A stretch of 64,000 nucleotides of DNA from Malassezia japonica (Eukaryota; Basidiomycota; Malasseziomycetes; Malasseziales; Malasseziaceae). Positions 12,670 to 41,096 of the stretch are shown piece by piece. The stretch's first letter is position 1; each line of letters starts with the position of its first letter. The translations under genes were made by a program, and so were the position numbers. The notes beneath the pieces are model-generated. The model made no database searches and was not told where the DNA came from. It saw nothing but the letters and a program-made list of their open reading frames with translations. The stretch is taken from NCBI RefSeq assembly GCF_029542785.1, contig NC_083372.1, positions 960,656-1,024,655 on the forward strand. The letters are read 5' to 3'.

Positions 12670-14809
12670 TCACCAGCCCTCGCTGCCCTCGACGAGGATG
12701 CGCGAAAGGTACTGGGACAAGGCGAGGCGCACGACCATCATGCGCTCCTGGACGAGCTTGCGGCGCACTGCCGAGCTGCTCGCCTCTGCGCCCGCCTTGC
12801 GGCTGAGCAGCAGCTCGAGCCAGTAAAAGTAGTAGTCAGCCACCTCGTCCGTGCCGTTCGACTCGGCCACGGAGCCGACCTTTTCGACGACGCGCAGCAG
12901 CTCGTACGTTTCCGGCATCGAGAAGTAGAGCTCTGGCGCCTGCACCAGCGGCAGCGCGTCGACGAGCAGCACCGTCAGAAAAGACTCGGGCGTCACGTCG
13001 CTCGTGAGCAGGCCGACGAGGATCTGCGCCGCCTCCGACCAGGTCGCCTTGTTCGCGTACAGCTCGTGGAAGTCGCGGTACTTGACGTGGAACACGAGCG
13101 GGGCAAAGGTCTCGGTCGAAAAGATGCTCGAGGTGGTTGCAAACGGCGTCGCAAGCTGTGCATTCTCGGCGGTAAGCCCCGCCTCGGTCGCGATCGCCTC
13201 GGCATTGTCGAGGAGCATGCGGGGAATCGTGTCGACGCTGCGGATAAACGCCTCGGGGCCGTGCTCGACATAGTCGTGGAGCATCTGGTCGGCGATCATG
13301 CGCACCTGCCGCGCATCGCGCGCACGCACGCTGTAGGCAATGGCGAGGCCGTACTTTTTGTGCTCCATGAGCTCGTGGCCGAGGCGCTTGCAAATGATGC
13401 GGACCTCGTCGTCCATGCCGTACTCGATGCACGCGCCAAGCACCTCTTCGACGCGCTTAAACTGCGCGTCGGCGTCGAGGCCCTCGTCCATGAGCGGCAC
13501 GCTAAAGAGCACGCCCCGCATCTTGGAGCGCGCAGCCGGCGTATGAATCACGGCGAGGTACGAGAGGGCCATGCGCCACAGGCGCTCCTCGTTCAGCAGC
13601 AGATCCGCCCAGGTAAAGAGAATCGAGTCGCAGAGCGGCTCGCCGTCCTCGCCCTTGGCCTCGTTATTATCGAGCAGCTGCGCCTTGTGGCAAAAGTCGC
13701 TCAGGTGCGTCGCGAGCCACTCGTCGTAAGGAATGCACTGCTTGATGGCCTTGGTCACCTCGCCGCGCATGAGCGACACGAGCACCATCTCGCTGCCGAG
13801 CGTGCCGTCGACCGGGAGTTGGTCGGTGATGAGCTGCACGACGTCTCTGAATTAGCAATGGTACGTACGGAAGATCGTCGCGCTTCATGGCGGGCTGCAC
13901 GAGCGTTCCCCACGCACACACGGCCTCGGTCCAGTTCTCGGAAAACTCCAGCACACGGTCCTGCACACCGCACAGGAGCTCGAGGAGGCAGCGGAACTGC
14001 GCCTCGAGCTCGAGGCGCTCTTCCTCGGGGTGCGGTGCGCCGTTCGCCTCGAGCTCTTTCTGCACGCTGTCCATCTTGCGCTGCATGCCCGAGAGAAAGA
14101 CGCGTACCGAGGTGTGCCAATTCCGGTGCGCCGAGAAGAAGGCGTGCTCGGTGGGGTAGCCGGTCGAGCGGGGCAGCGTCTTGAGGATCTGCGCGGTCTC
14201 GCTCGCGATTTCATAGAGCGTGCTGGGCGTGCCGGGCGCGCTATAGCTCTGCAGCACGGTCGCCGCCGTGCCGTAGAATCCACGCAGCACGCAGCGGAAG
14301 AGGTAGTCCCAAAATTCGGGATGGTCGTGCGACGGCGAGGTCTGCGCGATCTGCTGGCCCTGTTCGGTGGTCGGCGCTGCGTAAGAAAGAGTACATACCG
14401 ACGTCGTGCGCGTTCAGCCAGTGCAAGAGCTCCTCGCCAATGACGCCCATCCCACGGCCGTCCTCTGGAAAGTAGAGCACCTGGGCGAGGTGGAAGATGG
14501 TCTGCAGCGACTGGACGTGCGCGAGATACTCGGACTCGTCGAGATGTTCCGCATCCAGGTCGTTCAGATAGGTATGTATCGCGTCACAGTACAGCGTGCC
14601 GATGCGGTGGTAGTACTGCATCGTCTGCACCGACGGGCCGGCGTCCATCCACCCCGCATCGCCACGCTCCTCGCGCTGCTGCGACGCGGCAATGGACTGC
14701 AGGGAGGTGAATATGGTAAATGACTGGGTATAGAACTGGGTAAGCGCTAGATACACGCCTTGGTCCGCGCCGACGCGTCGCCGCCGGCCTCCCCTTCAGA
14801 CTGGGCCAT
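12670..14809 (-). CDS. NUP85: Nucleoporin Nup85 (Y-complex), 5' end uncertain
   Basis: Three exons are clear: from about 14756 down to 14399, then 14376-13869 and 13846-12670. They are joined by two introns of exactly 22 nt (14377-14398 and 13847-13868). The alpha-solenoid sequence carries Nup85 hallmarks: LAQVLYFPEDG, HPEFWDYLFRCVLRG, SVRVFLSGM, AVCAWGTLVQP, a segment DEWLATHLSDFCHKAQLL, and RGVLFSVPLMDEGL. Nup85 is a scaffold of the nuclear-pore outer ring. The best ATG is at 14809 (MAQSEGEAGG), but its frame meets a TAG after 20 codons. The Nup85 frame (GADQGVYLALTQFY) is offset by two bases and has no ATG of its own there. A missing base near 14760-14800 would join them. The first 15-20 residues should be treated as unresolved. 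Confidence 0.85.
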
Positions 14810-14868
14810 GGTCGCAACACGGGGAATTGGGAATTATTTTTTGCACAGGCATACGCCGGGGTATCAAG

Positions 14869-16764
14869 CTATGTGTCGCGCCTGCGCCGCGCCTCGGCAA
14901 AGATGCCGCCGGCACCGTAGTCCTCAACACGCCCGGCATAGCAGCCAGACGACAGGGGGAGCATGCGCGCGCCAGAGCCCGTCCATAGGAACTCGTCACG
15001 CAGCACACGCTGGATGGTATCAAAGGCTTCCTGCGTCGCGTACGCAATGCCAGTGCGGGGATCGCGGTAGCGCGCAGGAAGCCCGGTGATGACGCAGGTG
15101 CTCTGCCGGGGGCGAAAGGGGCGGTTGCGCGAAGGGACGATCGGGAGCCGGTCCCACTCACAGTGGTCGCCCAGCAGCATCCGGAACTCGTCCGCCCATG
15201 TCGCGCTGGGGTCCAGGTTGCAGAGCGAAAGGATCGTGCGGGCAGTGATCGTCGTATCAATCGGCTCGGACGGAGTCTCCGGGGGAGGCTCGGGCGTGTC
15301 GTGCGACTTTTCCGGCTCGTCCTCAGCCTTGATGGGGCCCGCGGGGGGCGGGGCGGTGGGTGGGGAGCGGGCAGGTGCAGAGGGTTGGGCAGGCTGCGAG
15401 GGCTGAGGAGTAGGCGTCGTAGGTGTAGGAGTAGCAGAAGGTGTAGGAGTAGTCGATGGCGCAGGAGCTGCAGAGGGCACCGGGGGCGCCGAGGGCGCCG
15501 AGGGTGCTGAGGATGCAATAGGTGCAGGAGTCGCCGACGGCGCCGAGGTCTGTACAGGCGTGTCGCTGCGCTCAGAAGGCGACAGGGTGTCGGGCGCCGC
15601 ATCCGGGGGCCGTTGCGCAGCTTGCGCAGCAGACGAGCTAGCCTCGCCCTCCGCGCCGTCCTTGGCCTCGGCTTGCTCGGCGCTGGGCACCTGTTCGGCG
15701 CCTCGCCCCGGCTCCTCGGCGCTGGGCGCGTGCTCGTCGTTGCTTGACCGCACTCTATCCTCCTCGCCGTCTCTGGGCGCCTCGGCGTCCTTCTTCTGTG
15801 CCTCTTCTTGCTCGGCGCCTGCGCCAGCATCGCTTTCCTTGGCTTCCTCGACCTCCATCTCTCCGTTTTCGGCGCGGATGCGCGCGCGCTCTTCCTGTGC
15901 CGCGCGCTCCTCTTCTGCCGCGCGTTCCTCGCGCTCGCGCTGCTCCTTTGCCGCGCGTTCCGCGGCGGCCGCGCGCTCTGCGGCAGCCGCCCGTGCCTCG
16001 GCCTCCTTCTGCTCGGCGCGAATCGCAAACACGCTCTGCGAGAGGCCGGTGCTAATCCAGCGCACGTACGGACCCTTGATATCGCGTTTGCCCGATGCCC
16101 GCTGCCGCGCCTTGCGATCTTCTTCCTGCTGCAGGAAGCGCTGGAGGCTCTGAATATTCTCCTCTTCCGTCTCGAGTGCCTCTGAGATGAGCGCGTCCTG
16201 CGTCAGCATCTTGGCGCGCTTGCGGACCGGGCGCGCGCGCACTGATGCGCGGCGCTCCTCGGCCTCCTTGAGCTTGGTCTGTGTCTCGAGCTTGGACTGG
16301 ACCGTCGAGTGGCGCGAGCTGCTGCGCAGCCCCCCCGAGCTCGGCGCAGGAATAGGATGCGAGGGCCGGCGGGGCTTGCGCTCGACAGGCCGCGGCGCCG
16401 CCGCCGTCGCGGGCCCCATCGCCGGGCGCATCGCGTGCAGCGGCACGGCGCGTGGCCGCGCCGCCTTGCGCTCGCGCTTCTCTTCGCGCTCGAGCGTCTG
16501 CTCCGCCTCGACATCCTCCCCGCTCCCCTCTTCCTCGCTGTTTCCGTCAAAGTCAGAGTCGACAATGTCCGGCTCATCTGCGTCAGCACAGCAAACGTAC
16601 CGTCGCCGCCCTCGAACTCGATGTCGTCCTCGACCTCGGCAAACATTTCGTCGCCTTCGACTTCCTGTTGCTCCAGCAGTTCGCGCATGCTACATGAGCT
16701 AGAATACATACCGGTTGCCCGCCGTCGCACGCCGCGCGCGCTGCTGGATCATCATCTCGGCCAT
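14869..16764 (-). CDS. VPS72: SWR1-complex subunit Vps72/Swc2 (YL1 protein)
   Basis: Exons 16764-16712, 16689-16601 and 16577-14869, with introns of 22 and 23 nt, give 616 residues. The N-terminus has the YL1 pattern: RRATGNRMRELLEQQ, an acidic block (EGDEMFAEVEDDIEF, DEPDIVDSDFDG), then a basic RKAAR-type stretch. The YL1-C domain is at the end (STCVITGLPARYRDPRTGIAYATQEAF). Vps72/Swc2 binds the H2A.Z-H2B dimer through the acidic region and helps SWR1 deposit H2A.Z. Between the conserved ends lie a long Glu/Ala-rich charged helix (about residues 210-330) and a Pro/Ser/Ala-rich linker, which make it longer than most orthologues. The small first exon is fixed by the splice signals and by restoration of the YL1 motif. 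Confidence 0.92.
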
Positions 16765-16810
16765 CGTCGCAAGAGGATGTGGAGAAGCACGTGTCAGAGC
16801 GCTAGAAGAT

Positions 16811-17756
16811 CTACAAGTCGACGACGCCGAGGGCGCCCCACGGCGGGAGAATCACGCTATCTTCTTCGCCATCCATGCGCGGAGTGCGCAGGACCGCGTC
16901 TTCGCCGTTGGTGCGCTGCGGACTCGGCGTCGACGTGGCGTCGTCCCACACTTCGTTCCGCGCCTCGGTGTCGGTCAACGCGACGATCGGGTGGGTGCGC
17001 GGCACCTGGACGTTTTCGTCGTGCAGTGCGTCCAGGACGCAGGCAGTGTGCCGCGTAATGTAGGAGAGGACCGAGTCCGGCGGGAGGCCCGCGTGCGCGA
17101 GCATCGCCGAGTTGATCTGCGCCGCGAGCGCCGTGCGCCGCGCGGGGTCGAGTATGGCGGGCGACGGCGTGTCGCTCGCAGTTGTATAGGCCAGTAGCGC
17201 GACCATCGCATCGATCTGGGCGACGTACACGTCGCTCTCCTCCTGCGGCAGCGTGCGGACGCGCGCATTCAAGAGCTGGATCTCGGCGAGGGCCGCCTGG
17301 AGCGTCGCATTGTCCTCGCCTGCGGCCTGTGTCTGCGCCTCATACTCGGCATAGAGCTTACGCACAAGCTCAACAAACTGCTGCATGTGCAGGTTGAGCC
17401 AGAGGTGGAACGGATTCAGCGACACGGGGTGCGGCGGAAACGAGCGCTGCCGCGCAGGGTTGTCCGGCGTCGGGCGGGCCAGGAGCACGCCCGGGAAGTG
17501 CGTGTCGCACAGCGCAAGCGCCGCGTCAATGTGCCCGTCGTGTATCGCGCTGCAGACGCCTAGGTGAGTTGGGGGACGTACGTTGGCGCGCCGCCGCATG
17601 CTCGCGCTGCGCGGTCGACAGCTGCATGTCGCCGTCACAGCCGGCCTCGTTCATAAACGCCACTGCTGCGTTCAGGTGTCCATGGTGCACAAGGTAGTCG
17701 AGCACGACACGCTGCACGACCCTGGGCGGCACCCGCCCCGCATCGGCAGACGCCAT
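16811..17756 (-). CDS. GID8: Gid8-like LisH/CTLH protein of the GID/CTLH ubiquitin ligase
   Basis: Exons 17756-17582 and 17559-16811, joined across a 22-nt intron, give 307 residues. A LisH motif (VVLDYLVHHGHLNAAVAFM) at about residues 15-35 is followed directly by a CTLH segment (VCSAIHDGHIDAALALCDTHFP) that is only continuous after splicing. A CRA-type helical region then extends to the C-terminus. This order defines the Gid8/Gid1-type scaffold proteins of the GID E3 ligase, which degrades gluconeogenic enzymes in yeasts. The lack of a SPRY domain favours Gid8 over Gid1/RanBPM. Extra Thr/Ser-rich inserts lengthen it. It is divergent from the BRCT gene, with 43 bp between the start codons. 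Confidence 0.8.
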
Positions 17757-17799: not shown

Positions 17800-19399
17800 A
17801 TGAGCACGAATCGGCTGCAGCGGACGCACCGCTCGACCAAGATCCCCAATGTCAAGCTGCGCCCGGTGCCTGTGTCGACCGCGTCGCGCGAGCGGCAGCG
17901 TGCGGATGCCGAGGACGACGCGCACTTCCAGGCGACACGCGACCACGGCACAACGCGCGGCGCGCATACCGCGCAGGACTTTCTCGCGTCCAAGCCGCTC
18001 CAGGGCGTCGTACTGAGCTTTACCGGGATCACAGACGAAAAGGTACGCGTCATTTCTCATGCAGCGTGAGCTTGTCGACATTGCCGAGCAGCTCGGAGCG
18101 CGCGTGCACAAAAATCTCACGAGCGAAGTCACGCACCTCGTCGCGCGTCAGCCGGGCTCAGAAAAGTACAAGTGCGCGGTGCGCTTTCATATGCACGTTG
18201 TGCGGCCCGAGTGGCTGTACCTCGTTCGCGAGGCATGGCTCGCTGGGGAGGACGCGGTCGATATCGCGCAGCTCGCAGACGAGTCGCGCCTCGGCGCGCT
18301 CGAAGGCATGCACATTGCGCTCAGCGGCGTAGACGGTACGTGGCCAACCTCACCCAGAATCCACACGCGCGCGCCTCGCAGAGCGCATCCACGAGCAGGG
18401 CGGCACGCTCGCGCCGCGCCTCTCGCTCGACGGATCGCTTACCCACCTCGCGTGCGGCCCGGATGACGGCCGCATCCGCAAGAGCTATACACGCGTCGTC
18501 GAGCAGCAGGCGCTCGCGCGGCACTATACCACAGACGCCCTCCCGGCGCCGATCCGCGCCGCAGCCGCTATCAAGCTCGTGCACGTCGAGTGGATCGACG
18601 AGTGCTGCGACACGGGAACGATGCTGCCCGAGGACGAGTACGACGCGCGCGCGCCACTTGCGCCACGGCCGCCACGGCCGCAGCCACCGCCGCGCATCCC
18701 GATGGCCGAGCGGACGATCTCGGCGCCGGCGCCGGCAGCTCCGCCACAAAAGGACCTCGCGCGCCTCGTCCACCGCATCCACAGCCAGACCGAGCCGGGC
18801 CTGGGGCAGGCACCGAAACGCACAGGACTCCTCGCGCTGACGCGTGCGGAGCGCTTTGGCCAGGAGGCGCCGAAACTCTTTGCACAGCGCACCTTTCACG
18901 TCGCGATGGCCGACGACGCCCGCACGCGGCGCGTCGCCAGCGCAATCCGCGGCGCAGGCGGCGTGCTCGTCGCAGAGCAGGACGCCATGTACACCGTGCG
19001 CCCGCTCGTGGGGGGCCGGGGGGCGGGCCAATGCGTCACGCACCACTGGGTCGAGCTGTGCCTGCACTACGACCGCCTCGTCGATCCCAAGGCGTACGTG
19101 GCGAGCGAGCCGACACGGGCGCCGATGCCGGTGCCGGGCGCCGACGCGGTGCGCTTCAGCTTCACTGGCGTCGACCGCGAGGGGCCCGAGTACCACCACG
19201 CGCTCGCGGCGATCCACGCGATCGGCGCCTCGGTCGAAGACGCGATGAGCAGGGCACGTACGACGCACCTCGTCGCAGAAGGCGACGCGAGGCACGGCGT
19301 CAAAGCCCAAAAGGCGGCTGCATGGGGTGTACCGGTCGTGGGGTATGAATTTCTGCAAAAGGTCCTACGTACAGGGCGGCTCCGCGAAACGAGCGACGT

Positions 19400-19431
<32 letters not shown>

Positions 19432-19619
19432 ATGCGAGCGACACGCCGGACGCGGAGCCGACGCCCGAGCCGGAACAAGACGTCCCGTCGTCGCAGTCGT
19501 GGTGGACCGAGCCCAACGAGCAGCCACATGTGATGTACGACGACCCCGCCGCGCGCAAAGAACGGACGCGCCTCTTGGCGCTGGTAGACGGCCATCCCGC
19601 CAAGAAGGCGCGCCGCTAG
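17800..19619 (+). CDS. DPB11: Dpb11/Rad4(Cut5)/TopBP1-like four-BRCT protein
   Basis: Exons 17800-18042, 18065-18335 and 18358-19619 (both introns exactly 22 nt) give 591 residues. Four BRCT-like units can be read. The first is at about residues 67-150 (LQGVVLSFTGIT, TSEVTHLVAR, VVRPEWL). The second is at about 165-285 (LEGMHIALSGVD, HLACG, VHVEWIDECC). The third is near 355-430 (RTFHVAMAD, THHWVELCLHY). The fourth is near 445-530 (VRFSFTGVD, TTHLVAEG). Two BRCT pairs and this length fit Dpb11/Rad4, which loads replication factors and activates the checkpoint kinase by binding phosphoproteins. A run of about ten prolines follows BRCT4, then an acidic tail ending in a basic KKARR. Pair spacing supports the family; another multi-BRCT protein is possible. 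Its TAG overlaps the stop codon of the convergent EFM7. Confidence 0.75.
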
Positions 19620-23533: not shown

Positions 23534-23637
23534 GACTTTATAACTCAGTTGGTTAGAGTACCACGTTAACAATCGTTAACAAATCGTGGAAACGGATAAT
23601 ACCGTGGAAGTCCCCGGTTCGAGCCCGGGTAAAGTCA
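23534..23637 (+). tRNA. tRNA, probably Val (anticodon AAC), with 30-nt intron
   Basis: The acceptor stem pairs GACTTTA with TAAAGTC, the D stem ACTC with GAGT, the anticodon stem CCACG with CGTGG, and the T arm CCCGG-TTCGAGC-CCGGG. The anticodon loop starts TTAACA, giving AAC. The intron spans about 23572-23601. It begins with a near copy of the anticodon loop: CGTTAACAA occurs at 23564 and again at 23574. The intron also offers a second CGTGG that could compete for the anticodon stem. A TTTT run at 23641 would stop Pol III. Confidence 0.75.
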
Positions 23638-25740: not shown

Positions 25741-28491
25741 ATGATTTTCGTCTACAAACGAGGTACGTACACCTTCTATGCTCATAATAGACGGACGTAA
25801 AGAGGAGGTCCGCTTCGACAAGGTCACGGCCCGTGTCTCGAAGCTTTGCTATGGCCTGGACATGAACTATGTGGACCCGATCGAGATCACCCGCAAGGTA
25901 TGTCGTGTGGCGTAACACTAATACAGGTTATCGACGGTATCTACGAGGGTGTGACTACGGTTGAGCTCGACAACCTCGCCGCCGAGACGGCCGCGTACAA
26001 GACGACGACGCACCCTGACTACGCTGTGCTCGCTGCGCGCATTGCGATCAGCAACCTGCACAAGGAGACCAAGAAGTCGTTCAGCCAGGTCGTTCAGGAC
26101 CTTTACGAGTATGGTATGTTGCCAAGTTTAACATGTAGTCAACCCCCGCACCAGCAAGCACAGCCCCATGATCTCGGATGAGACCTACAAGGCGGTGATG
26201 GACAATAAGACGACGCTCGATTCGGCGATCATCTACGAGCGCGACTTCCACTATGTACGTTTTTGCTACTTACCCAGAACTTCTTCGGTTTCAAGACGCT
26301 GGAGCGTTCGTACCTGCTGCGCATCAACGGCAAGGTGGCGGAGCGCCCCCAGCACATGCTCATGCGTGTTGCTGTCGGTATCCACGGCACCGACGTTGCG
26401 AGCGCGATCGAGACCTACAACATGATGTCGGAGAAGGCCTTTACGCACGCCTCGCCGACTCTCTTCAACGCCGGTACACCGAACCCCCAGATGTCGTCGT
26501 GCTTCCTGGTGTGCATGAAGGACGACTCGATTGAGGGCATTTACGACACGCTCAAGTCGTGCGCGATGATTAGCAAGACGGCCGGTGGTATCGGTCTCAA
26601 CATCCACTGCATCCGTGGTACCGGTTCGTACATTGCCGGCACGAACGGTGTTAGCAACGGTATCATTCCCATGCTCCGTGTGTACAACAACACGGCCCGC
26701 TATGTCGACCAGGGTGGCAACAAGCGCCCTGGTGCGTTTGCCATTTACCTTGAGCCGTGGCACTCGGACGTCTTTGAGTTCATTGACCTCCGCAAGAACC
26801 ACGGTAAGGAGGAGGTTCGTGCGCGCGACCTTTTCTACGCCCTATGGGTCCCTGATCTGTTCATGAAGCGTGTCGAGCAGGGTGGTGACTGGACGCTGAT
26901 GTGCCCTGCCGAGTGCCCTGGCCTCGCGGACTGCTACGGCGAGGAGTTCGAGGAGCTCTACGAGCGCTACGAGCGCGAGGGCCGCGGCCGTCGTACGGTC
27001 AAGGCGCAGAAGCTCTGGTACGCGGTCCTTGAGGCGCAGATCGAGACGGGTACCCCCTTTATTCTCTACAAGGATGCTGCCAACCGCAAGAGCAACCAGA
27101 AGAACGTGGGTGTGATCAAGTCGTCGAACCTGTGCACGGAGATTATCGAGTACAGCTCGCCGGATGAGACCGCCGTGTGCAACCTGGCCTCGATTGCCCT
27201 GCCTACCTTTATTGAGGGCACTGGCTCGTCGAAGAAGTACAACTTTGCCCGCCTGCACGAGACGGCCAAGGTGGTGTGCAAGAACCTGAACCGCATTATT
27301 GACATCAACTACTACCCCGTCGAGAGCGCGCGCCGTTCCAACATGCGCCACCGCCCGATTGGTATCGGTGTTCAGGGCCTGGCGGACGCCTTTATGATTA
27401 TGGGCTATCCCTTTGACAGCTCCGAGGCGCGCATGCTCAACCTGCAGATCTTCGAGACGATCTACCACGCTGCCCTGGAGCGCTCGTGCGAGCTTGCCAA
27501 GGAGCAGGGTGTGTACGAGACCTACGAGGGCAGCCCTGCCTCGCAGGGCATCCTGCAGTACGACCTGTGGAACAAGACCCCCACGGACCTCTGGGACTGG
27601 GCTGAGCTCAAGGCCAAGATTGCCCAGCACGGTCTGCGCAACTCGCTGCTCCTCGCGCCGATGCCGACTGCGTCGACGAGTCAGATCCTCGGCTTCAACG
27701 AGTGCTTCGAGCCTTACACGAACAACATTTACATGCGCCGCGTGCTTGCCGGTGAGTTCCAGGTGGTGAACCCCTGGCTGCTCCGCGAGCTTGTCGAGCA
27801 GGGCCTCTGGAACGAGGCGATGAAGCAGCGCATCATTGCCCACGGTGGTTCGATCCAGAACGTCCCCGGTATCCCCGACCGTATCAAGGCGCTCTACAAG
27901 ACGGTGTGGGAGATTAGCCAAAAGGTGATTATCGACATGGCTGCGGACCGTGGCGCGTTCATCTGTCAGAGCCAGAGTCTCAACATTCACCTCAGTGCGC
28001 CGACCTTTGGCCAGCTTACTTCGATGCACTTCTACGGCTGGAAGAAGGGTCTCAAGACCGGCACGTACTACCTGCGCACTCGCCCTGCTGCCAACGCCAT
28101 TCAGTTCACGGTGAGCAAGGAGGACATTGTCGCTGCCAAGGAGTCCAAGAAGAACGCCTCGGCTGCTGCCGCGCAGGCCAAGGCCGCACCGCAGCCCAAG
28201 GTGCACGCTGCTACGGACGCCAAGGCTGCTCCCCCGGCGCCGGCGCCGGCGCCGGAGCAGGAGGGCAAAGCATACAACGAGGTCGTGAACGGCGTCGGCC
28301 GTCTGGGCGTCGACGGCACCATCACCCAGGATGGCCCCGGCTCGCAGCGCCCAGAGGAGGGCGCGCCGGAGGACTCGGAAGACGCCGGTTTCCAGGCGGC
28401 CCTCGAGCGCCAGCGGCGCCGTCAAGAGGAGGCCGACAGGCTTGCGTGCTCTTTGGAGAACAAGGAGGCGTGCCTGATGTGCTCTGGATAG
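25741..28491 (+). CDS. RNR1: Ribonucleotide reductase large subunit
   Basis: Five exons: 25741-25762, 25791-25897, 25927-26113, 26139-26254 and 26278-28491. The introns are 28, 29, 25 and 23 nt, all in the first 540 bp. The product has 881 residues. It reduces ribonucleoside diphosphates to deoxy forms with a radical supplied by Rnr2. The N-terminal ATP-cone reads [19 protein letters not shown]. The catalytic barrel has [32 protein letters not shown], and [19 protein letters not shown]. The C-terminal redox pair is CLMCSG. A lysine/alanine-rich linker of about 100 residues precedes the tail. The tiny first exon is secured by the ATP-cone sequence it completes. Confidence 0.97.
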
Positions 28492-28645: not shown

Positions 28646-31115
28646 ATGTCCCCACCTAAACTGTGCGTATTTTATGCTCACATAGCGTCCTGCGCCCCCC
28701 ACCAAATCGGGACTTTTTGCAGGGCTATCCCGGCATCCCTTCGTCCGAGACGCGGCCGCCCGCGCACTTATCCGGCACCATCGAAATTCAGGGGTCCTCC
28801 AAGCCCCTCGAGGCTGCCTGGCTGCGCGTCGAGATGGCCAAGACGGAGACCTTGCCATCCGGAGAGTCATGGACTGAGCTAATCGGACAGGGCCCCATCG
28901 ACGTGTGGGTGGCTCCTCAGGGTGTGCGCACGGATGGCGAGTCATGGGCGCAGCTGCCATCGGTACGTGCGCATTACTCACCCAGCGGAGTTTTCCGTTT
29001 CGCGTGAATATCCCGGAGAAACTTCCGGCTACGCTGCGCTTGGAGAAGAATGGCGGGATCAGCTATGCGCTCATCGCGACGCTTTGTGCTCGAGTGAAGC
29101 GGTACGTTGTGTGCGTGTCTAATACAGTGGCCTGCTGAAGCGTTCTTCGATCAAGACTGTTGTGCACGATCGCCGCACGATTGTCCTCGAGAAACACGAG
29201 CTGCACTCGACGTGGCCGGCGTACAAGTATGTATCGATGCTGACGCAGTGTCCCGGAAGAGCACGAAGACACTGTGGGTCCGTTCCGTGTGCGTTTGTAC
29301 AGGAACAAACAGGCATACGCTGCGCTGGATACCTTGGACGTACGAGTGGTGGTGTATAGCAAGTCACCCGAGACGGTCAAGCTCAAGACGGTCGGCGCAT
29401 CTGTGCGCCAAACCGTAACCTATCTTCCGTTCGCGAAAGGCGACACGGCAGCCGATGGCACACCGAGCACGGCACAGCAGCGCTCCGAGATTCTCGTCCA
29501 CAAGAACCGCAACGTCCGGAAGAAGATCCACAAGGACGAGTTCTTGATGTACGACCTTTCGATGACGATCCCCAAGTCGCGCACGCTCATGTCGGTGCAC
29601 ACGGCCAAACATATCGAAATCTCGCACCAGCTGCGCGTCGGTGTCGAAGTCGGCAAGGAGCGCATCGTGTTTGAGCATCTGAAGCTCCAGATTTCGGCCT
29701 TCCCATCGAGTGTGAGCACGGCAACGATGGCACGTATCGGTAAGGTGCCCTCGCTCTGTCTCGAGGAGGGAGCGGAGCAAGCCGCACCGGTACAGCAACA
29801 GCAGCAAGTGTATGCGGAGAACGAGCCGCTGGAGTATCCCCAGCCGGGCCGCTTTGATCAGTACGAGCGCATGCTCTCCGACGAGACGTCCTCGATCCCT
29901 GCTCTGGAGAACGACGCGGCGTTCCTTGGCACGGCTACGCCACGGGGGCCGCTGGTGTTCCAATCCGATCCCAACTCTCCGACGCAGAACTCGTTCGACG
30001 CGGATGCACGCCGCCCAGTCTCTGCAGCGAACCACACTGCGCTGATGCAGATGCCCAGCAACGCGCTACGCCCGGGTGACGTCCTCCCTTTCCAGGGCGG
30101 ATCGCCTCTGGATAGTCCCCGCCGCGTGACACAGGCCTACCCGAGCTCGCCGCTGGCCACTCGGCACAACTATGGCGCAGAGTCGCCGACGTTTGCCGAG
30201 CCGGTGCGGCAGAGCCGAGTGCCGACGACGGCCCAGCTCATTGCAGAGGACTACAACCGGAGATATTCGCAGATGCCTCCGGCGGCTTCGTCGGCCGCCC
30301 AGCCGGTCGCTTCGTCTACCGCGGAGCCTTCTACCCACCCGGCTGCTCAGAAGGGATTCATGTCGGCAGAGAGCGAAAAGGTGCGCCTCTTTGAGCGCGC
30401 CCGTGCCGAAGCCCAAAATTTCCAGAGCGGCTATCAGAATGGCGTCGAGTTCCCTGAGCAACGAGGCGCAGACGAAGAGAGCGCTGCACCCGCTGCGGCG
30501 CCGATTACCGCAGCCGCAACTGCTCCGGTGGCCGCGTCTGGCGCTTCCAATGCACCTCGCGCCTCCTTCAACTACCCTTCTGCCGCGGACGAGAAGGCGG
30601 CTCTGTACGAGCGCGCACGCAACGAGGTTGCCGATTTCCACAAGGATGATCCCACTATTGTGCTACAGGACGAGGCGCCTGCACCTTCGCTGATTGCCCA
30701 GTCGGTTCCGTCCGCCAAAGCTGCCGCGCCGATCGCGATGCCGTCGGCAGAGGACGAGAAACAGCAGATGCGTCGGTATTACGAGGCACAGGACGCTGTT
30801 GCTCAACACCATGCCGAGCCCGCACCCACGGTCGCACCGCCTGTGGTCACGACGCCGACTGCAGAAGCGACCTCGCCGCCTGCTACCTCGCCGTACCTGA
30901 CCAAGTCGGAGGCGCGCGCCGTGGAGGAAAAGACCAAGTTGAATAACCACTATGCACAGCAGGAGTCGGGCTCGTCTGCTGCATCCGCATCCAGTACGCA
31001 GCAGTTCGGGCTCAAGATGCTCGGCAACGCGGCATCGGCCACCACCGACTCCAGCCTGTCGCAGCGTCTCTCCACAGCGCCGCCCCCCCGCCCGCCGAAA
31101 TTGCCGCTTTCGTAG
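28646..31115 (+). CDS. Arrestin-domain protein (alpha-arrestin type)
   Basis: Exons 28646-28662, 28686-28962, 28986-29101, 29128-29226 and 29249-31115 give 791 residues; the introns are 23, 23, 26 and 22 nt. The arrestin N domain is at about residues 6-165 (VLRPPPNRDFLQGYPG, GTIEIQGSS, GGISYALIATLCARV). The arrestin C domain runs to about residue 325 (LDTLDVRVVVYSKSPETVKL, IKTVVHDRRTIVLEKHEL). The long C-terminal tail is Ser/Pro/Ala-rich and carries a repeated motif: SEKVRLFERARAEA, DEKAALYERARNEV, DEKQQMRRYYEAQDAV, then EEKTKLNNHYAQQ. Fungal alpha-arrestins recruit the Rsp5 ubiquitin ligase to membrane transporters, usually through PPxY motifs. I find none here, so the repeats may serve another contact. 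The family is secure; the cargo is unknown. Confidence 0.82.
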
Positions 31116-31156: not shown

Positions 31157-32044
31157 ATGCGACTGAGATGGATCGTGTGGTTGAGTAGCGCGCTCGCGGT
31201 TAGCGCACACGTCTCGAGTCCCGACATACCAAAGGTTCATGCTGGCGAGGCCCACCGTATTGCGAAGGACGACCCTTCCAAGGTGACCAAGTACGAGCCT
31301 GATCAAGTATACCACAAGGTATCGCTCGATCCCAAGCCTCGGCCCGGCGATAACACGTCGCTGGGCTGGGCCAACCCAAGTGACAGGAACGGAAGCATGT
31401 TGGATGTATGTAACCTATTCTCACACAGCTCGTTGGCAATGGGTATCGTGAACCTATTAATGCCATCATTTCGGGTCAATCCGACCCAAGCGTTTTGAGC
31501 GAGCAGGGTCTTTTGGACTATGTGCGGTACGCAGCGAGTCTTACGCAGTTCAATTGGGTTCTCGTTTGAATGCCTACACATCCATCTTGGTGGTCTGCAA
31601 CATGCGAACTTGGGCGACGGCAATGGTTGGGTGCCGCAACTGTTTGAGTACCGCAGCTTGCTCTTCCCTGGCTCGCCGGGTGTGTGGGTGGGCTCGTGCT
31701 GGGAGAGCTTGGCTGGAGGCAACCACTTTCGCGTATGGAAGCAGAATGGCACGGAGGCGAACACAGGTGCCTGGTTCCTGGCCGTGTCGAAGGAGGAATC
31801 GGTGGCCGAGCAGCACACCATCATCCCGAATGGATACGACGTGGGACGCGATTTGCTCGCCGAAGCGGCCACGCGGGGAGGGTCGTTTGGTGGGCACGCT
31901 TGGCGTGCCACCGTCGAATGGAAGACGGGGCTGTTGCCAGAGGGCAAACGCAGTACGTATTCCCAACTTATGCCAGGTATCAACCACAACATTTCCATCG
32001 ATGGCCGCGTCGCTGTTCTTACTGTTAAACGTACTTCTATCTAG
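31157..32044 (+). CDS. Secreted protein of unknown function
   Basis: Exons 31157-31405, 31429-31526, 31549-31952 and 31977-32044 (introns 23, 22 and 24 nt) give 272 residues. The start MRLRWIVWLSSALAVSAH is a clear signal peptide. Potential N-glycosylation sites NTS, NGS, NGT and NIS follow. The body includes FECLHIHLGGLQHANLG, WVPQLFEYRSLLFPG, VWVGSCWESLAGGNHFRVW and GHAWRATVEW. It is rich in Trp and Gly and resembles no family I can name. The last intron is a multiple of three with no stop, so both spliced and retained forms would be in frame. It lies 41 bp after the arrestin gene and ends 4 bp from the convergent TANGO2 gene. Confidence 0.7.
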
Positions 32045-33121: not shown

Positions 33122-33230
33122 TGCTCCCAACCTGGTTCGAACAGGTGACCTCAAGAAGGACTGAGGAATCCTATTGAAGGCAATTTTTGCTTACTTCAGT
33201 CTTGCGCTCTGCCAGCTGAGCTATAGGAGC
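33122..33230 (-). tRNA. tRNA-Phe (GAA), intron-containing, copy 1
   Basis: On the minus strand the acceptor stem is GCTCCTA/TGGGAGC, the D stem GCTC/GAGC, the anticodon stem CAAGA/TCTTG with loop CTGAAG (anticodon GAA), and the T arm ACCTG-TTCGAAC-CAGGT. The intron is about 36 nt (33158-33193), placed after base 37 as in other eukaryotic nuclear tRNAs. The discriminator is A. A near-identical copy lies 81 bp away. Confidence 0.92.
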
Positions 33231-33311: not shown

Positions 33312-33416
33312 TGCTCCCAACCTGGTTCGAACAGGTGACCTCAAGAAGGACTGTTGAATCCTAGTGAAGGCGAATTAGGCTTCAGTCTTGCGCTCTGCCA
33401 GCTGAGCTATAGGAGC
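33312..33416 (-). tRNA. tRNA-Phe (GAA), intron-containing, copy 2
   Basis: The mature part is the same as that of the copy at 33122-33230: same stems, anticodon GAA and T arm. The intron is shorter (about 32 nt, 33348-33379) and differs in sequence. The pair is a tandem duplication in which exons stayed fixed while introns drifted. Confidence 0.92.
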
Positions 33417-34050: not shown

Positions 34051-36065
34051 ATGTCCGATCTGATGCAATCTGGCGGAGCCATATCACAGGACTCTTCGTC
34101 CGATTCATATGGACTCTTTGCCGATAGCCCAATTCAGTTTTTCTTTTCGCGATATGCCGTTGCAATGGTGGTCATGGTAGGTGGCTGCGCTTATCCAGGT
34201 TATCGTCACGAATCGCATCCAGCATGTGTGCACTCCATATGGGCGTCCTGCACGCATATCATCATTGGAGAGGGTGCTGTTACGGCTCCCTGCGATCGTT
34301 ATGCTCTCCTACTCTCTCTGGGGTTTGGTGAAAGCCATGGTCCAAGATACGTCTACCGCCTCTGCCCAAAATTGGTTGGCCTACATCCGCCCCCTGATCC
34401 CCACCTCTGCGCAACCAGCTAAAAATGAGTCGCTGCTTTGGTTTGCATTCCTTGGTGCTTGTGTAGCGCAGTGCATTAGTACTGCGATTCGCTCCCTGGA
34501 GCTTGCGTACGTCGCCGTTCTAACGCAGGACTTCCCACGAGGATCCCTCGACATTCAACCTTGTCGGGTTTGGGTTCATTTTGTATATTCACGCGAATGC
34601 CCGCGAATTCAAGCCCAATGCTCATGTGTTCCTGATTCTCATTGGCAAGGTGGTGGAGTTACTTGGAATGAACATTTTCCTATGCCGCAACCCCCCCATT
34701 CTGTCTCGCCTGTTCTTTACCATGGCGCTGAGCGTGGTAATGTCAATTCATTACCTGTATACCGCTATGTGCACTGATGAATATCCGATCATCCACAGCG
34801 GCGGCCGTCTCATGGAAGTGTGCATATCTGCCGTGATTCTCTTGACGCTCTTCCTGCACGCCATGACAATGTACTTTGTCGATGGTTCTGTTGATTTCCG
34901 TCGTTTGGTATTCCATCGCAGCAACATGCCGCGGCGAACTGACGATTTTTCGCTTGCTGTATTGAAACTCGGCTCTGCTTGCTTGCATGCAACGCAGCTC
35001 ACAGGTCTTTCTTGTGAGTTGAAAGCACTTGATGCACCGATGCATACCTATGTGGAACTTTATCCTGATGGCCGCACCGTGATTGAGCACAGCATCGAAG
35101 ACTATGAAAAGATGGAGTGCGATGGCATCAATGCCTTCGAAAAAGAGATCAAAGACGTACGCGTGGAAATGGAACAGAGTCGCGTGGAAATGGGCGGCGT
35201 GGTACGTGGCGTGGACAAGATGCGTGCGATGTGGAACTTTTTCGGAACGTTATTTGAAATCTTGTGGCACATGGTTAGCGAAGTGGGGCTATACTTTGCG
35301 CACTATTTGCCGGAGCCTCCTGACTTTGTTCGCAACATCCCACGGAATGTTCGCCTCATCTGGCATGGGACCACTGGCGAAGCTCAGCGTATGGCACGTC
35401 TCGAGCACGAGTCCTTGCAGCGCACACAGGCGATCCGGGCTCATGAGCGGATGGAGCATCTGCGGCGGCGGCGCGATCTGCAGATCCTTCGGCAACGCTC
35501 GCCCTCGACCTGGAGTCGAGATGACGACTTGAATGCCGCGGAACTGGTCGCTTTGGCGGAAAATTCACAGTCCAACAGCACGTCACTTGTCGCTTTCCAA
35601 GATGTGCTTGTGAAGCATATGCTGCGCCCAGATCACGCACCTCCGTTGACGCGCAGCGAGTACCGTCAGATGGCTACGCCTCCGGAAACGCCGCCCAACT
35701 CCGATTCGTGGATGTCGTTTCTATCCGCACGTGCCGAACTGTCCAACACACGCACCGACTCGGATCGCCATACACAGCTCACGCTGGTGCGTCTTCTGCA
35801 GGAGCGACGCGATGCGCTATGGGCCCAATCGCCTGATACTTTTGATCGGGAACGGGCGCGGCTGTGTGTCGTCTGCTGTTCTGAGGATCGTACAATCATC
35901 TGCTGGCCGTGTCGCTGTCTTGCTTTATGTGATAGCTGTCGCGGCACACTGGCAAACCAGCAGCACGCGCTCCTCGCGCTGCATGCTTCGCAGGCGCGCG
36001 CCATGCAGCTATGCCCGACCTGTCGCGCCCCGATCGCCGCCTTCTCGCGCCTGTACTTGCCATAG
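34051..36065 (+). CDS. Asi1/Asi3-like multi-pass membrane RING ubiquitin ligase
   Basis: Exons 34051-34176, 34199-34506 and 34529-36065, with two 22-nt introns, give 656 residues. The N-terminal half has about five hydrophobic segments (RYAVAMVVM; VLLRLPAIVMLSYSLWGLV; LLWFAFLGACVAQCIS; a segment with EDPSTFNLVGFGFILYI just after the second splice; VCISAVILLTLFLHAMTMYFV). A coiled, charged middle follows. The C-terminus is a RING of the type CVVCCSEDRTIICWPCRCLALCDSC, then a spacer and CPTCRAPI. Membrane segments plus a C-terminal RING resemble budding-yeast Asi1/Asi3, inner-nuclear-membrane ligases that degrade misplaced membrane proteins and latent Stp1/2. The resemblance is by layout and a few motifs, so the nuclear role is inferred. 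Confidence 0.72.
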
Positions 36066-36118: not shown

Positions 36119-37839
36119 ATGACGACGCAGTTCGACAACGTCTATCACGGCGCGGGTACCTCTCTCGGCAAGATCCGCTTCTCGAATGCGGGTCTGGGAT
36201 GGAAACCGTTGGACGAAGGTTCCACGGTGACGATTCCCGCTGACCAAATTGTAGGATTTTCGTGGTGCCGGTACGTTTTCCTACTCACGCAGTGTGGCGC
36301 GCAACTTCCAGCTGCGCATTGAGTTGAAGGGTGATGACAAGGATGAGGAGAGCCACTTTGCCTCGTTCGAAAACTTTCAGCGCGATGATCAAGAGCGCCT
36401 TGCCGAGGTCTTGCAGGAGTGCTACGACAAGAAGCTAGAGGTCGTCGAGGTGTCTGTCCGTGGCTGGAACTGGGGCTCGGCAGAGGTGGATGACAGGGAT
36501 ATGAAGTTCCTGGTGCGGAATAAGCTTGCGTTCTCGCTTCCGCTGTCCAACATTGCCAACAGCAACATTGCGGGTCGCACCGAGGTCTCCATGGAATTCC
36601 TCAACCCAAAGGAACAGCAGCCTGAGCAGAACACCGGTGCGTCATCCAACGCAGGCGGTCTTCCGTTCAATGGGCCCAAGAAAAACCGTCCGGACCAGCT
36701 GGTTGAGATGCGGCTTTACATTCCGGGCCAGATCGAGAAGGAGGAGGAAGAGAAGGGATCTGGCGACGAAGAGGAGGAGGAAGAGGAGGAGGAAGAAGAG
36801 AGCGCAGCTGCTGCATTCCACAATGCGATCAAGGCCAAGGCCGATATTGGTCAGGTGGCTGGCGACGGTATTCTTGTCCTCAAGGAGGTCCTGGTGCTTA
36901 CGCCCCGTGGCCGCTACGATATCGACCTCTTCCCTCAGTTCTTGCGGTTGCGCGGTAAGACGTACGACTATAAGATTCTCTACTCGTCCATCACGCAACT
37001 CTTCTTGCTGCCGAAGCCTGACGATATCCATGTGCTATTTGTCATCGCACTGGAGCCGCCGATCCGCCAAGGTCAGACGCGCTACCCTTACCTCGTCTTG
37101 CAATTCCCTCGTGAGGAAGAGATGGATGCTGAGCTCAACCTTGATGAGGAAACGATCCAGACCAAGTACGAAGGCAAACTGAAAAAGCGCTACGAAGAGC
37201 CAACCTTCCGCATCGTCACCAACCTCTTCCGTGTGCTCTCGCAGCAGAAGGTCAACGTTCCCACTGGTTTCACCAGCAGCACTGGCCAAGAGAGCGTGCG
37301 TTGTAATGTCAAGGCCAACGATGGTACTCTCTACCCGTTGAACAAGAGCCTGATTTGGGTGTCGAAGCAGACGATTCTTGTGCCCTACAGCGATATCCAC
37401 CAGCTTGTATTTAGCCGTGTGGGTGGTGCTGTGGCATCGGCCAAGACATTTGATTTGCGTGTGGCTACGCGCCACGGAGGCGACCACACTTTCCAGTCCA
37501 TCAGCCGCGAGGAGTTCGACTCTCTGAACAATTTCTTTGCAGAGCGCAAGATCCGCATCAAGAACGAGCTCGCAGACGAGGCAAGCGGTATGGGTACCGC
37601 TGTAGACGAGCTTCTGGGCGATGATGACGACGCCAAGCCACTTCCGGGCGATGACGATGACGACGACGAAGAAGGTAAGTTTCCCCGTTCAACACTGACA
37701 CACAGACGACGAAGACTTCGAGGAGGAGTCCGACGACGATGGCGGAAGTCCTTCGGAGGCATCCAGTGGCGAGGACGACGAAGAGTTTGCGGCACCGTCC
37801 GAGGACGAGAAGCCCAAGGTCAAGAAGCAAAAGACATAG
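36119..37839 (+). CDS. POB3: FACT complex subunit Pob3 (SSRP1)
   Basis: Exons 36119-36270, 36293-37674 and 37706-37839 (introns 22 and 31 nt) give 555 residues, the standard fungal Pob3 length. Signatures: FDNVYHGAGTSLGKIRFSNAGLGWK, then the paired PH-like domains with LRGKTYDYKILYSSITQLFLLPKPDD, YPYLVLQFPREEEM and QESVRCNVKANDGTLYPL. An acidic loop (about 12 Glu) sits in the middle and an acidic tail at the end. There is no HMG box, as expected in fungi, where Nhp6-type proteins supply it. With Spt16 it reorganises nucleosomes during transcription and replication. The second intron interrupts the acidic tail. Confidence 0.95.
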
Positions 37840-38795: not shown

Positions 38796-38852
38796 TGCAC
38801 TGTAGCAAAAGAAGCAACCCACTGTGTACTTTACAGAACCGCAGCAAAAAAG

Positions 38853-39600: not shown

Positions 39601-39657
39601 GGTGCGACGAAAAGCGACGTTTGCCGCGTGCTTCTAAAATCGAGGATTTATGTACCA

Positions 39658-41096
39658 CTACAATTTCGCCCTGGCCGGCGCGTTTCCGCGCGCCCAAGCG
39701 GCAAGCAGTACATGGGCCATGGCCGTAGGCGGGGGCACGCTGCGTGAGTCAATAGAACGTACAAATAGCGTTCGCCCTTATGCGTAGGAGCATCTTTGCT
39801 CTTCAAGCCAAGCTTCTGCTCAGAAGCGGTGACGGCTGCCAAAACGTCCTTCTTTGATGCAAAGAAAGCCTCCTCGAGCTCGATATCCTGGTCTAGATGC
39901 ACATTTGTGCTGGTATCTTTCGCATAGGCGTATGCACCAAAGAACAGACTCGCTGGAAAAGGCCAGGGTTGCGAGCTGCGTAAGACGATACACGTACCGG
40001 TAGTAGGAGACTTGGTCGGTCTCGATACCAGTCTCTTCCATCGCCTCGCGACGGACCGACTCCTCGATGGATTCACCGGGTTCCACAAAGCCGCTGGGTG
40101 AGCAAGCATCACGTACGCAATACAGGAGTACAGACCCTTCGGCCACATCTTTTGGCGGCCAAGCAGGATGTGCTCATCATCGGCACTGACGATTCCGACA
40201 ATCACGACAGGGTCGGAACGAGGGTAACTGTAGTTCTGCACCGATTCCACAGAAGGGCATGTCGACTTGAGAGGGGAGGCACTGTGCACTGCCTTGACAA
40301 AGGCTGGCTTTCCTTCGGTGACCTTGGAGAGCACAGACGAACACGCACGTTTGTGCCCACCCCAAACCGAGTAGTTCTGGCTTCCGCATGCCGAGCAAAA
40401 TGCGTAGCGCTCGCTCCAGTCCAAAATTGCACGACCGTAAGCAGCGAGGGCAGCGTCTTCCTTTTCCAACTCTCCTGTCAAGATCACCGTACGCATTTGG
40501 AAAACTTTGTATGGCGCATCCTCGGCAGTAAGTGCATCCAACAGTTTGCTGCCAGGAAGTGCATCTTGCTCGGGGACGTTGGGAGGGCGGTAGGAAAGCG
40601 ACACGGCAAAGTACGCCGGGCCACTAGGAACAACATAATCTTGTTCTTTCGCATCGTCCGTGTACTTGAGCGTCTTTGAAGGTGAGCCATCTTCATATAC
40701 ACCAAGGTACATGAGAGAGAGAGCCGGGGCAATGATATTTTGTGTCACACGACTCCAGTGACCATTGTCAGCATCGCTGCGCTTCGTTAGGCCGTAGGTC
40801 TTGGGTCCAAACACCTGGGTCGCGTTCGGTGCGAATGGACGCACGGTGTGCATTATAGTCTCTTCAATGTCTTTCCATCCAAAGAGAGCAAGATTATTAG
40901 GTGCATCGCGACGAACGAGGGGATCACCATGGCTGAACAACACAAATTTTGTATCGGGTTTAACCAGCGCCTGGTTCAGGTACGAGGTGGACTCACGCAG
41001 CCACGACGCACGATTCAGATTTCCGCCGGCGAAATAATTGACTTAGATCAGTATGGTCGACAAACCTGTCTTGAACGAGGGGTAGCGGCTGGCCAT
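39658..41096 (-). CDS. NPY1: NADH pyrophosphatase (Nudix hydrolase)
   Basis: Five exons: 41096-41066, 41041-40117, 40093-39998, 39975-39763 and 39739-39658. The introns are 24, 23, 22 and 23 nt. The product has 448 residues. The NudC-type zinc ribbon is CSACGSQNYSVWGGHKRAC, where the second pair is CX14C-like and incomplete. The Nudix box GFVEPGESIEESVRREAMEETGIE becomes contiguous only after splicing, which supports the exon model. The downstream family motif SQPWPFPASLFFGAYA is present. The enzyme hydrolyses NADH to NMNH and AMP and in yeasts is often peroxisomal; the C-terminus (ARAKL) resembles a PTS1 signal, with AKL as last residues. A 5' exon carrying MASRYPSFKTVNYFAGG is added here from splice signals. 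Confidence 0.92.

What the first reader, a model, noticed from the sequence alone, without database searches (positions are those of the whole stretch)
13847..40116. Twelve introns of exactly 22 nt with one rigid layout
Of 44 introns assembled here, 12 are 22 nt and 8 are 23 nt, and none is shorter. All twelve 22-nt introns follow GTANGY, seven bases, CTNAY at positions 14-18, then NNAG. The branch A is always base 17, five bases from the last G. Positions: 13847, 14377, 16690, 17560, 18043, 18336, 29227, 31527, 34177, 34507, 36271 and 39976 (first base in window coordinates). These are near the smallest spliceosomal introns known, and the sharp floor suggests a physical limit on donor-to-branch distance.
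Basis: seen in the sequence. Interest (0 to 1): 0.85.

Follow-up and report, generated by a model that had tools for sequence, protein, structure and literature searches.

The report
Thousands of 22-base introns, one layout
A skin yeast, Malassezia japonica, carries thousands of apparent introns of exactly 22 bases that share one fixed spacing between the intron start and the branch point, with a sharp limit below it, which makes this yeast a natural test of how short an intron can get before splicing fails.

Summary
All twelve 22-nt segments exist as described. Keeping any one of them puts a premature stop in its gene (12 of 12), and eight lie inside conserved protein domains. The source is Malassezia japonica. 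Genome-wide, the strict layout occurs 3,114 times at 22 nt, 364 times at 23 nt, and at chance level (10, control 12) when the donor-branch spacer is one base shorter. 'None shorter' holds in the window but not in the genome: 48 hits (control 6) show introns of 21 nt. These keep the seven-base donor-branch spacer and lose a base after the branch point. It is not universal: Stentor introns use base 10. U2AF65, U2AF35, SF1, Prp8, U2 and U6 were found. Longer introns extend pairing to U6 (or U1) with A-T at +7/+8; introns at the limit lack this and favour G-pyrimidine at +8/+9. I read them as old spliceosomal introns shrunk to a lineage-specific geometric wall. RNA evidence and branch mapping were not available. 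My searches found no report of such a class in a fungus. One public gene model mis-splices its 22-nt intron.

The parts
13847..13868 (-). 22-nt intron in a Nup85 nucleoporin gene (12670-14648)
   Evidence: motif; kept alone gives a stop at codon 320; inside Pfam PF07575 match 11-574; junction continuous in 7 of the 10 relatives covering it that were aligned
14377..14398 (-). 22-nt intron in the same Nup85 gene
   Evidence: stop at codon 136 if kept; junction continuous in 8 of 10 relatives
16690..16711 (-). 22-nt intron in a YL1/Swc2-type gene (14869-16764)
   Evidence: inside PF05764 match 9-223; not called by my gene finder
17560..17581 (-). 22-nt intron in a LisH-CTLH gene (16811-17756)
   Evidence: just inside PF10607 match 56-235 (junction at residue 58)
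18043..18064 (+). 22-nt intron in a Dpb11-like BRCT gene (17800-19619)
   Evidence: inside BRCT match 64-133; three relatives have a 7- or 8-residue insertion here that fits a read-through 21- or 24-nt intron
18336..18357 (+). 22-nt intron in the same BRCT gene
   Evidence: inside PF16589 match 161-267; junction continuous with relatives
29227..29248 (+). 22-nt intron in an arrestin-domain gene (28834-31115)
   Evidence: outside the Pfam match (which starts at residue 125; junction at 115)
31527..31548 (+). 22-nt intron in a gene of unknown function with an apparent signal peptide (31157-32044)
   Evidence: no Pfam match; gene not called by my finder
34177..34198 (+). 22-nt intron in a RING-finger gene (34051-36065)
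   Evidence: gene not called by my finder; RING match is just below its curated cut-off
34507..34528 (+). 22-nt intron in the same RING-finger gene
36271..36292 (+). 22-nt intron in the FACT subunit Pob3 gene (36119-37839)
   Evidence: inside PF17292 match 3-100; no gap at the junction against Pob3 chains 7xsx_k and 7nky_O
39976..39997 (-). 22-nt intron in a NUDT12/NPY1-type gene (39658-40853); mis-spliced in the public M. japonica model
   Evidence: no gap at the junction against NUDT12 6o3p_A; public protein P0001 lacks 9 residues here
16578..16600 (-). 23-nt intron (spacer 8), YL1-type gene
26255..26277 (+). 23-nt intron (spacer 8)
28963..28985 (+). 23-nt intron (spacer 8), arrestin-domain gene
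31406..31428 (+). 23-nt intron (spacer 8), gene 31157-32044
31953..31976 (+). 24-nt intron (spacer 8, gap 3), gene 31157-32044
39740..39762 (-). 23-nt intron (spacer 8), NUDT12-type gene
40094..40116 (-). 23-nt intron (spacer 8), NUDT12-type gene; one relative's peptide here fits a read-through 22-nt intron

Best explanation
These are ordinary U2-type spliceosomal introns of Malassezia japonica that have shrunk onto a geometric wall set by this spliceosome. At least seven bases must lie between the donor GTANGY and the U2-type branch motif CTNAY, so the branch A cannot come closer than base 17 and the lariat loop is 17 nt. The branch-to-AG side is usually 5 nt and can shrink to 4. SHOWN here: the segments, their frame and domain effects, the wall in whole-genome counts, the fact that the wall sits on the donor-branch side, and the presence of the six components I looked for and found. 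INFERRED: that the branch A is base 17; that the linker must stay single-stranded to bridge the U6/5'SS and U2/branch helices, which would explain why introns at the wall lack the extra U6/U1 pairing seen in longer introns; and that deletion pressure against the wall, plus some advantage at exactly spacer 7, makes the spike.
For: Whole-genome counts against the reversed-pattern control: spacer 6, 10 vs 12; spacer 7, 3,114 vs 13; spacer 8, 364 vs 10; spacer 7 with a one-base gap (21 nt), 48 vs 6; GTACGT with spacer 0-6, 14 vs 12. A self-trained gene finder with a flat length prior (10-160) on 264 kb called 122 introns in its last of three rounds: 55 of 22 nt, 2 of 21 nt, none shorter, and no spacer below 7. 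Frames fit splicing for 54 of 58 decidable 22-mers out of 60 tested with 120-base flanks. All 12 window introns give a premature stop if kept alone. Eight of 12 lie inside Pfam matches, with residue-level support for Pob3 and NUDT12. Two or more further pairs to U6 past +6: d>=20 10/20, d13-19 5/12, d9-12 4/15, d8 3/16, d7 8/59; d7 vs d>=13, Fisher p 0.0008. U6 and U2 keep the ACAGAGA and GUAGUA boxes. Prp8, SF1, U2AF65 and U2AF35 are present.
Against: No RNA evidence could be used. The branch A is read from a motif, not mapped. Counts fall from 3,114 to 364 and then flatten in the sample, which a plain deletion-against-wall walk with constant rates would not give. Spacer-7 introns are not poorer in extra U6 pairs than their own base composition predicts (8/59 = 14% against 9% expected), so loss of the long-intron signal is seen but active avoidance of pairing is not shown, and +8 G is not explained. 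The pairing trend was found after looking and rests on 122 introns. The frame test uses a coding model trained on my own gene calls. U1 was not found with RF00003.
Confidence: 0.8

Rival explanations
1. 22 nt is a selected optimum, not only a wall: the donor-linker-branch-AG block is recognised as one rigid unit, and spacer 7 with G-pyrimidine at +8/+9 makes a specific contact that favours exactly this length.
For: The spike is 8.6 times the 23-nt class, followed by a flat tail in the sample. +8G is common at spacer 7 in both the 22- and the 21-nt class (51/81 and 56% of 48) and less so in 23-nt introns (21/78). GY at +8/+9 in 30/59 spacer-7 vs 10/63 other introns, p 4.5e-5. The branch motif is weaker in 21-22-nt introns (CTAAY 19/57) than in introns of 30 nt or more (20/32).
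Against: No contact partner identified; by recalled numbering U6 A39 would face +8 and does not pair with G (sequence). Homologous introns in relatives seem to vary by up to 4 nt (inferred from peptides).
Confidence: 0.4
2. The class arose by recent spread of a 22-nt intron element (introner-like gain).
For: A single length with a shared internal +8/+9 bias. Slight excess of similar pairs: 65 at Hamming <=3, reached by 1 of 100 column shuffles.
Against: All 61 sampled 22-mers are distinct. Relatives' peptides fit introns of 21, 22, 23, 24 or 27 nt at the same positions. No strong motif in the exon flanks (-1 G 46%); target-site duplications were not tested in any other way.
Confidence: 0.05
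3. The absence below 22 nt reflects selection against introns divisible by three, not geometry.
For: 22 nt always shifts the frame if retained; multiples of three are fewer among called introns other than the 22-mers (15 of 67).
Against: 21-nt introns with spacer 7 exist (48 vs 6), while 21-nt introns with spacer 6 do not, although both are multiples of three. Spacer 5 is also empty in the 264-kb sample.
Confidence: 0.03
4. The segments are not introns (chance, sequencing errors or programmed frameshifts).
For: No transcript data were used here.
Against: Chance is excluded. Longer introns in the same genes share the same donor, branch and acceptor motifs. Junctions match homologous proteins.
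Confidence: 0.02

Closest known systems
Stentor coeruleus 15-16-nt introns (PMC9505925: abstract and outline, sections 3 and 9 and passages read)
   Same: One dominant length and a fixed branch A followed by about 5 nt; U2AF1 and U2AF2 homologues listed.
   Different: Branch A at position 10, so a much smaller loop; AU-rich with weak branch consensus; 90.9% are 15-nt introns with the branch A at that position, against 45% of called introns at 22 nt here.
Mikrocytos mackini 16-17-nt introns (PMC10245619: section 7 and passages read)
   Same: Very uniform length and highly conserved sequence; its authors propose deletion bias against a functional minimum.
   Different: 224 introns and only 17-19 spliceosomal proteins identified; here thousands of introns, U2AF and SF1 present, and longer introns in the same genome.
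Chlorarachniophyte nucleomorph introns, 18-23 nt (PMC6461891: passages read)
   Same: Hundreds of introns in a narrow short range.
   Different: A relic endosymbiont nucleus with shrunken U1 and U5 and no identifiable donor motif; here a fungal nucleus with strong donor and branch motifs.
Paramecium and Trichomonas short introns (PMC3213138: one passage; PMC12316389: passages)
   Same: Paramecium has cDNA-supported introns of 22, 23, 25, 26 and 28 bp; T. vaginalis has type B introns of about 25 nt, shortest 23. So 22 nt as such is not a record.
   Different: In the passages read, lengths spread over several bases and no donor-branch wall is described.
Short introns of other fungi (PMC9241646, PMC6473144, PMC7426719, PMC2219887, PMC11913375: passages only)
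   Same: Malassezia are said to have very short introns; M. restricta median 30 nt, with gene prediction run at a 15-nt minimum; EST-supported Ustilago maydis introns start at 24 nt; Cryptococcus neoformans has some below 40 nt.
   Different: No 22-nt spike, donor-branch floor or spacer-specific motif appears in the passages that I read.

Membership tests
U2-type spliceosomal introns | GT-AG ends with a donor that can pair with U6 ACAGAGA and a branch motif that can pair with U2 GUAGUA | tested here: met
   12 of 12 fit the motifs; snRNA boxes present; the pairing itself is inferred
U2-type spliceosomal introns | Removal restores the reading frame and the conserved protein | tested here: met
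   12 of 12 by frame; 8 of 12 inside Pfam matches
U2-type spliceosomal introns | Excision as a lariat, seen in RNA | not testable with these tools
   no transcript data available
Single-length mini-introns (Stentor, mikrocytids, nucleomorph) | Fixed branch-A position in the dominant class, with a sharp lower limit | tested here: met
   spacer 7: 3,114; spacer 6: chance; branch A read from the motif
Single-length mini-introns (Stentor, mikrocytids, nucleomorph) | Nearly all introns of the genome fall in a range of a few bases | tested here: not met
   55 of 122 called introns are 22 nt; lengths run from 21 to 131
Single-length mini-introns with reduced spliceosome (mikrocytid type) | A strongly reduced set of spliceosomal proteins | tested here: inconclusive
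   U2AF65, U2AF35, SF1 and Prp8 found, but only these proteins were looked for
Introner-type propagated introns | Near-identical copies at positions not shared with relatives | tested here: not met
   61 of 61 sampled are distinct; relatives' peptides fit introns at three of the seven positions tested in three genes (inferred from peptides)

The most novel reading that the evidence does not exclude
Introns at the donor-branch limit form a distinct splicing mode in an otherwise ordinary-looking fungal spliceosome: the 5' splice-site helix is kept from extending past +6, a dedicated +8G/+9Y linker spans to the branch helix, and proximity replaces strong branch pairing. This would make a 17-nt lariat loop the true geometric limit of this enzyme, readable from one genome.
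Probability: 0.35. Interest if true: 0.85.

Novelty: new variant of a known kind. Interest (0 to 1): 0.7.

Why it matters
How close the 5' splice site can lie to the branch point is an old open question, and the extreme cases that I found in print come from ciliates, relic nuclei and parasites. Here one fungal nucleus that keeps U2AF, SF1 and Prp8 holds thousands of introns at a sharp limit beside longer ones, so the limit, its linker motif and its snRNA pairing can be compared within one genome and tested with short constructs. It also has a practical side: gene finders or read mappers with a minimum intron above 22 nt would mis-annotate thousands of junctions, and one public M. japonica model already mis-splices such an intron.

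Tried and rejected
Total length as the constrained quantity: rejected, because 21-nt introns exist but by losing a base after the branch (one sampled 21-nt intron has spacer 8 and gap 0). Loss of U2AF or SF1 as the cause of short branch-AG gaps: rejected, because all are present. Multiples-of-three avoidance: rejected (same 21-nt comparison). Intron gain by copying: no support. A simple U6-pairing explanation of +8G/+9Y: fails, since +8 G would face U6 A39; recorded as unexplained (note). That note also lists a purine at +13 as special to spacer 7; the same place before CTNAY is purine in 71% of 23-nt introns, so I dropped it. Apparent spacer-4 hits in the 264-kb sample (8 vs 0 in the control for gaps 3-12): two are in called introns that have a second branch motif downstream at spacer 8 or 10, and the other six are outside called introns. 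A first, stricter frame test could decide only 11 of 59 cases, all consistent. A longer start for the Nup85 gene was out of frame (12 internal stops). Coding score per base as an expression proxy against intron length: no correlation in 69 genes. U1 snRNA with RF00003: not found, and nothing rang in the controls either, so this says nothing. Ten answered literature searches gave listings in which I saw no report of this class in a fungus. Two of the 15 papers were opened: Xanthophyllomyces introns of 227 bp and Paramecium introns of 22 bp; the other 13 were judged by title and start of abstract. The M. sympodialis proteogenomics paper that I recall is not held, so prior mention there cannot be excluded.
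Full report
Where it is. The window is the last 64 kb of contig 3 (1,024,655 bp) of an 8.43-Mb, nine-contig genome. A protein of the window matches 'NAD(+) diphosphatase [Malassezia japonica]' on a contig of the same length, so the organism is Malassezia japonica, a basidiomycete skin yeast.

The observation. All twelve segments are present at the stated places and follow GTANGY, seven bases, CTNAY, two bases, AG. Twelve hits of this spacing stand against a mean of 0.0 in 20 first-order Markov simulations of the window. Spliced models of the nine genes holding them have no internal stop. If any one 22-nt segment is kept and the other introns are removed, a premature stop appears, in 12 of 12 cases. 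With all introns kept, eight genes stop by codon 136; the ninth (NUDT12-type) runs on without a stop to the end of the segment, out of frame. The genes are Nup85, a YL1-type protein, a LisH-CTLH protein, a Dpb11-like BRCT protein, an arrestin-domain protein, an unknown protein with an apparent signal peptide, a RING protein (match just below its cut-off), Pob3 and a NUDT12-type hydrolase.

Homology at the junctions. Eight of the twelve junctions lie inside Pfam matches. Pob3 and NUDT12 align with solved-structure sequences with no gap at the 22-nt junctions. I aligned 11 of the 22 Nup85 hits, 11 of the 19 BRCT hits and 8 of the 120 listed NUDT12 hits. Of ten Nup85 relatives (one further hit, P0131, covers only the last exon), 8 and 7 run through the two 22-nt junctions without a gap; the others, public models, drop sequence there. 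At the first BRCT junction six relatives fit without an insertion, three carry an insertion that reads like an unspliced intron, and two do not cover it. At the second, nine fit and two start there.

How strong the pattern is. The tool counts a pattern over the whole genome and the same pattern reversed as a control. Spacer 7 with gap 2 (22 nt): 3,114 vs 13. Spacer 8 with gap 2 (23 nt): 364 vs 10. Spacer 6 with gap 2 (21 nt): 10 vs 12. GTACGT with spacers 0-6 and gaps 1-3: 14 vs 12. Spacer 7 with gap 1 (21 nt): 48 vs 6. So about 42 introns of 21 nt with spacer 7 are real, and they shorten only the branch-AG side. Within the 264-kb sample, gaps of 3-12 give 17 vs 3 at spacer 7 and 3 vs 5 at spacer 6; spacer 4 gave 8 vs 0, but only two of those are in called introns, and both have a second branch motif further downstream. 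The limit is therefore the donor-branch spacer, whatever the total length.

An unbiased check. I wrote a self-trained gene finder with a flat intron-length prior from 10 to 160 and ran it on the window plus 20 stretches of 10 kb (3% of the genome). In the last of three rounds it called 152 genes and 122 introns: 55 of 22 nt, 11 of 23, 2 of 21, none shorter, longest 131. The earlier rounds gave 53 of 115 and 59 of 123 at 22 nt. Spacers: 59 at seven, 16 at eight, none below seven. It missed four of the twelve window introns, because two genes were not called and one gene start was misplaced. Coding frames on either side fit removal of 22 nt in 54 of 58 decidable cases of 60 tested with 120-base flanks, 53 of 55 (of 61) with 90-base flanks, and 45 of 54 (of 59) with 180-base flanks, perhaps because other introns lie close by. 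The coding model was trained on the finder's own genes. The sample has fewer 22-mers per kb than the genome as a whole (61 in 264 kb).

Relatives. In 89 tests of junction positions in public proteins of relatives (seven junctions, three genes), 12 peptides can be back-translated into an intron of this type starting at the M. japonica junction; the background is 0.00003-0.00024 per spacing cell, 30 cells. By spacer: four at 7 (P0144, P0006, P0003, P0005), four at 8, two at 9, one at 11, and one at 10 that aligns as exon and is probably chance. None is below 7. Two of the spacer-8 cases (P0002) may be the same species. The four spacer-7 proteins have no species name and are 49-63% identical to the M. 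japonica proteins. So the introns seem old, their lengths differ by up to 4 bases between species, and relatives also reach spacer 7. This is inference from protein letters: fitting the pattern is necessary for an intron but does not prove one.

Machinery. U6 has GAUACAGAGA and U2 the GUAGUA box. Prp8 has an open frame of 2,485 aa around its PROCN domain. The U2AF65 candidate scores 224 bits in its main open piece, below that family's cut-off of 310 for the whole protein, but its best solved-structure matches are U2AF65 chains and it keeps the tryptophan ligand motif (motif recalled). U2AF35 has two zinc fingers and matches fission yeast U2AF23. SF1 is present in two pieces over the cut-off. 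The short branch-AG gap is thus not due to U2AF loss. Other spliceosomal proteins were not looked for.

A signature of the limit. Spacer-7 introns carry G at +8 (51 of 81) and mostly a pyrimidine at +9, in the 22- and 21-nt classes alike; 23-nt introns show this less (G at +8 in 21 of 78; Fisher p 7e-6). Longer introns instead tend to carry A at +7 and T at +8, which could extend pairing to U6 (and, from recalled U1 sequence, to U1). The share with two or more further pairs past +6 falls from 10/20 (spacer 20 or more) through 5/12, 4/15 and 3/16 to 8/59 at spacer 7; base composition alone predicts 13% in the longest class and 9% at spacer 7. So the signal is strong in long introns and absent at the limit, but spacer-7 introns do not fall below their own expectation. 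The branch motif also weakens: CTAAC/T in 20 of 32 introns of 30 nt or more, 11 of 33 at 23-29 nt and 19 of 57 at 21-22 nt. My reading is that a seven-base linker must remain single-stranded to reach the branch helix, and that closeness of the sites replaces pairing strength. The +8 G itself remains unexplained. The trend was noticed after the fact.

Mechanism and rivals. I favour shrinkage of old introns under deletion pressure until a geometric wall, as the Mikrocytos authors proposed for their 16-nt introns (PMC10245619, section 7 read), with some added advantage at exactly spacer 7, because the drop from 3,114 to 364 is followed by a flat tail in the sample. A pure wall would give a smoother decline. 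Copy-and-paste gain is not supported. Avoidance of multiples of three cannot explain why one 21-nt design exists and the other does not.

Known and new. Single-length mini-introns are known in Stentor, mikrocytids and nucleomorphs; introns of 22-28 bp in Paramecium and of 23-25 nt in Trichomonas are in print; and Malassezia introns are known to be very short. I saw no report of a 22-nt class or of a donor-branch floor in a fungus in the listings of the ten searches named under Tried and rejected; subscription papers are mostly not covered. The limit is not universal, because Stentor has its branch A at position 10. What is new here is the sharp spacer-specific wall beside longer introns in one genome that keeps the main branch- and acceptor-recognition factors, and the linker and pairing signature. 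The public NUDT12-type model of M. japonica has both 23-nt introns of the gene right but replaces the 22-nt one with a longer intron, losing nine residues that most relatives shown conserve.

Corrections made on checking. I added a test of each 22-nt intron on its own and opened two papers. I removed a purine at +13 from the signature because 23-nt introns share it, and marked the U2AF65 family score as below its cut-off.

Noticed in passing
window 39976-39997 (public protein P0001): The public M. japonica NUDT12-type model skips nine residues (SQPWPFPAS) right after the 22-nt intron, as if it used an acceptor 27 nt downstream, while both 23-nt introns of the gene are right.
   Followed up: yes
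window 12670-14648 (entry P0131, 389 aa): No full-length M. japonica Nup85 was among the 22 hits at E<=1e-150 (7,994 candidates scored); the only 100% match covers the last exon alone. Its sources are hidden, so whether it is the public gene model is unknown.
   Followed up: partly
public proteins P0148 and P0149 (M. psittaci, M. yamatoensis), P0144: Introns of 24 or 21 nt appear translated as 8- or 7-residue insertions in relatives' Dpb11 proteins; these lengths are multiples of three, so the frame stays open.
   Followed up: partly
window 10810-12491 and 24187-24774: Some genes keep introns of 34-44 nt, several with a CTAAC branch motif; the gene at 12046 looks like ribosomal protein uL14 (recalled, not searched). 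Possibly a different intron-length regime in such genes.
   Followed up: no
spacer-7 introns genome-wide: G at +8 with a pyrimidine at +9 marks introns at the spacing limit; the contact behind +8 G is unknown.
   Followed up: partly
21-nt introns genome-wide: The base before the branch A is C in 39 of 48 hits (mostly CTCACCAG), whereas it is nearly free in 81 of the 22-nt introns: one base less on the AG side goes with a much stricter branch motif.
   Followed up: no
window 33122-33230, 33312-33416, 23534-23637: Three of four tRNA matches span over 100 bases, so these genes probably contain introns.
   Followed up: no
window end, 64000: The window ends exactly at the end of contig 3, so it may be subtelomeric; GC is 56% there against 62% for the sample, and 22-nt introns are sparser (12 in 64 kb) than the genome average.
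   Followed up: no
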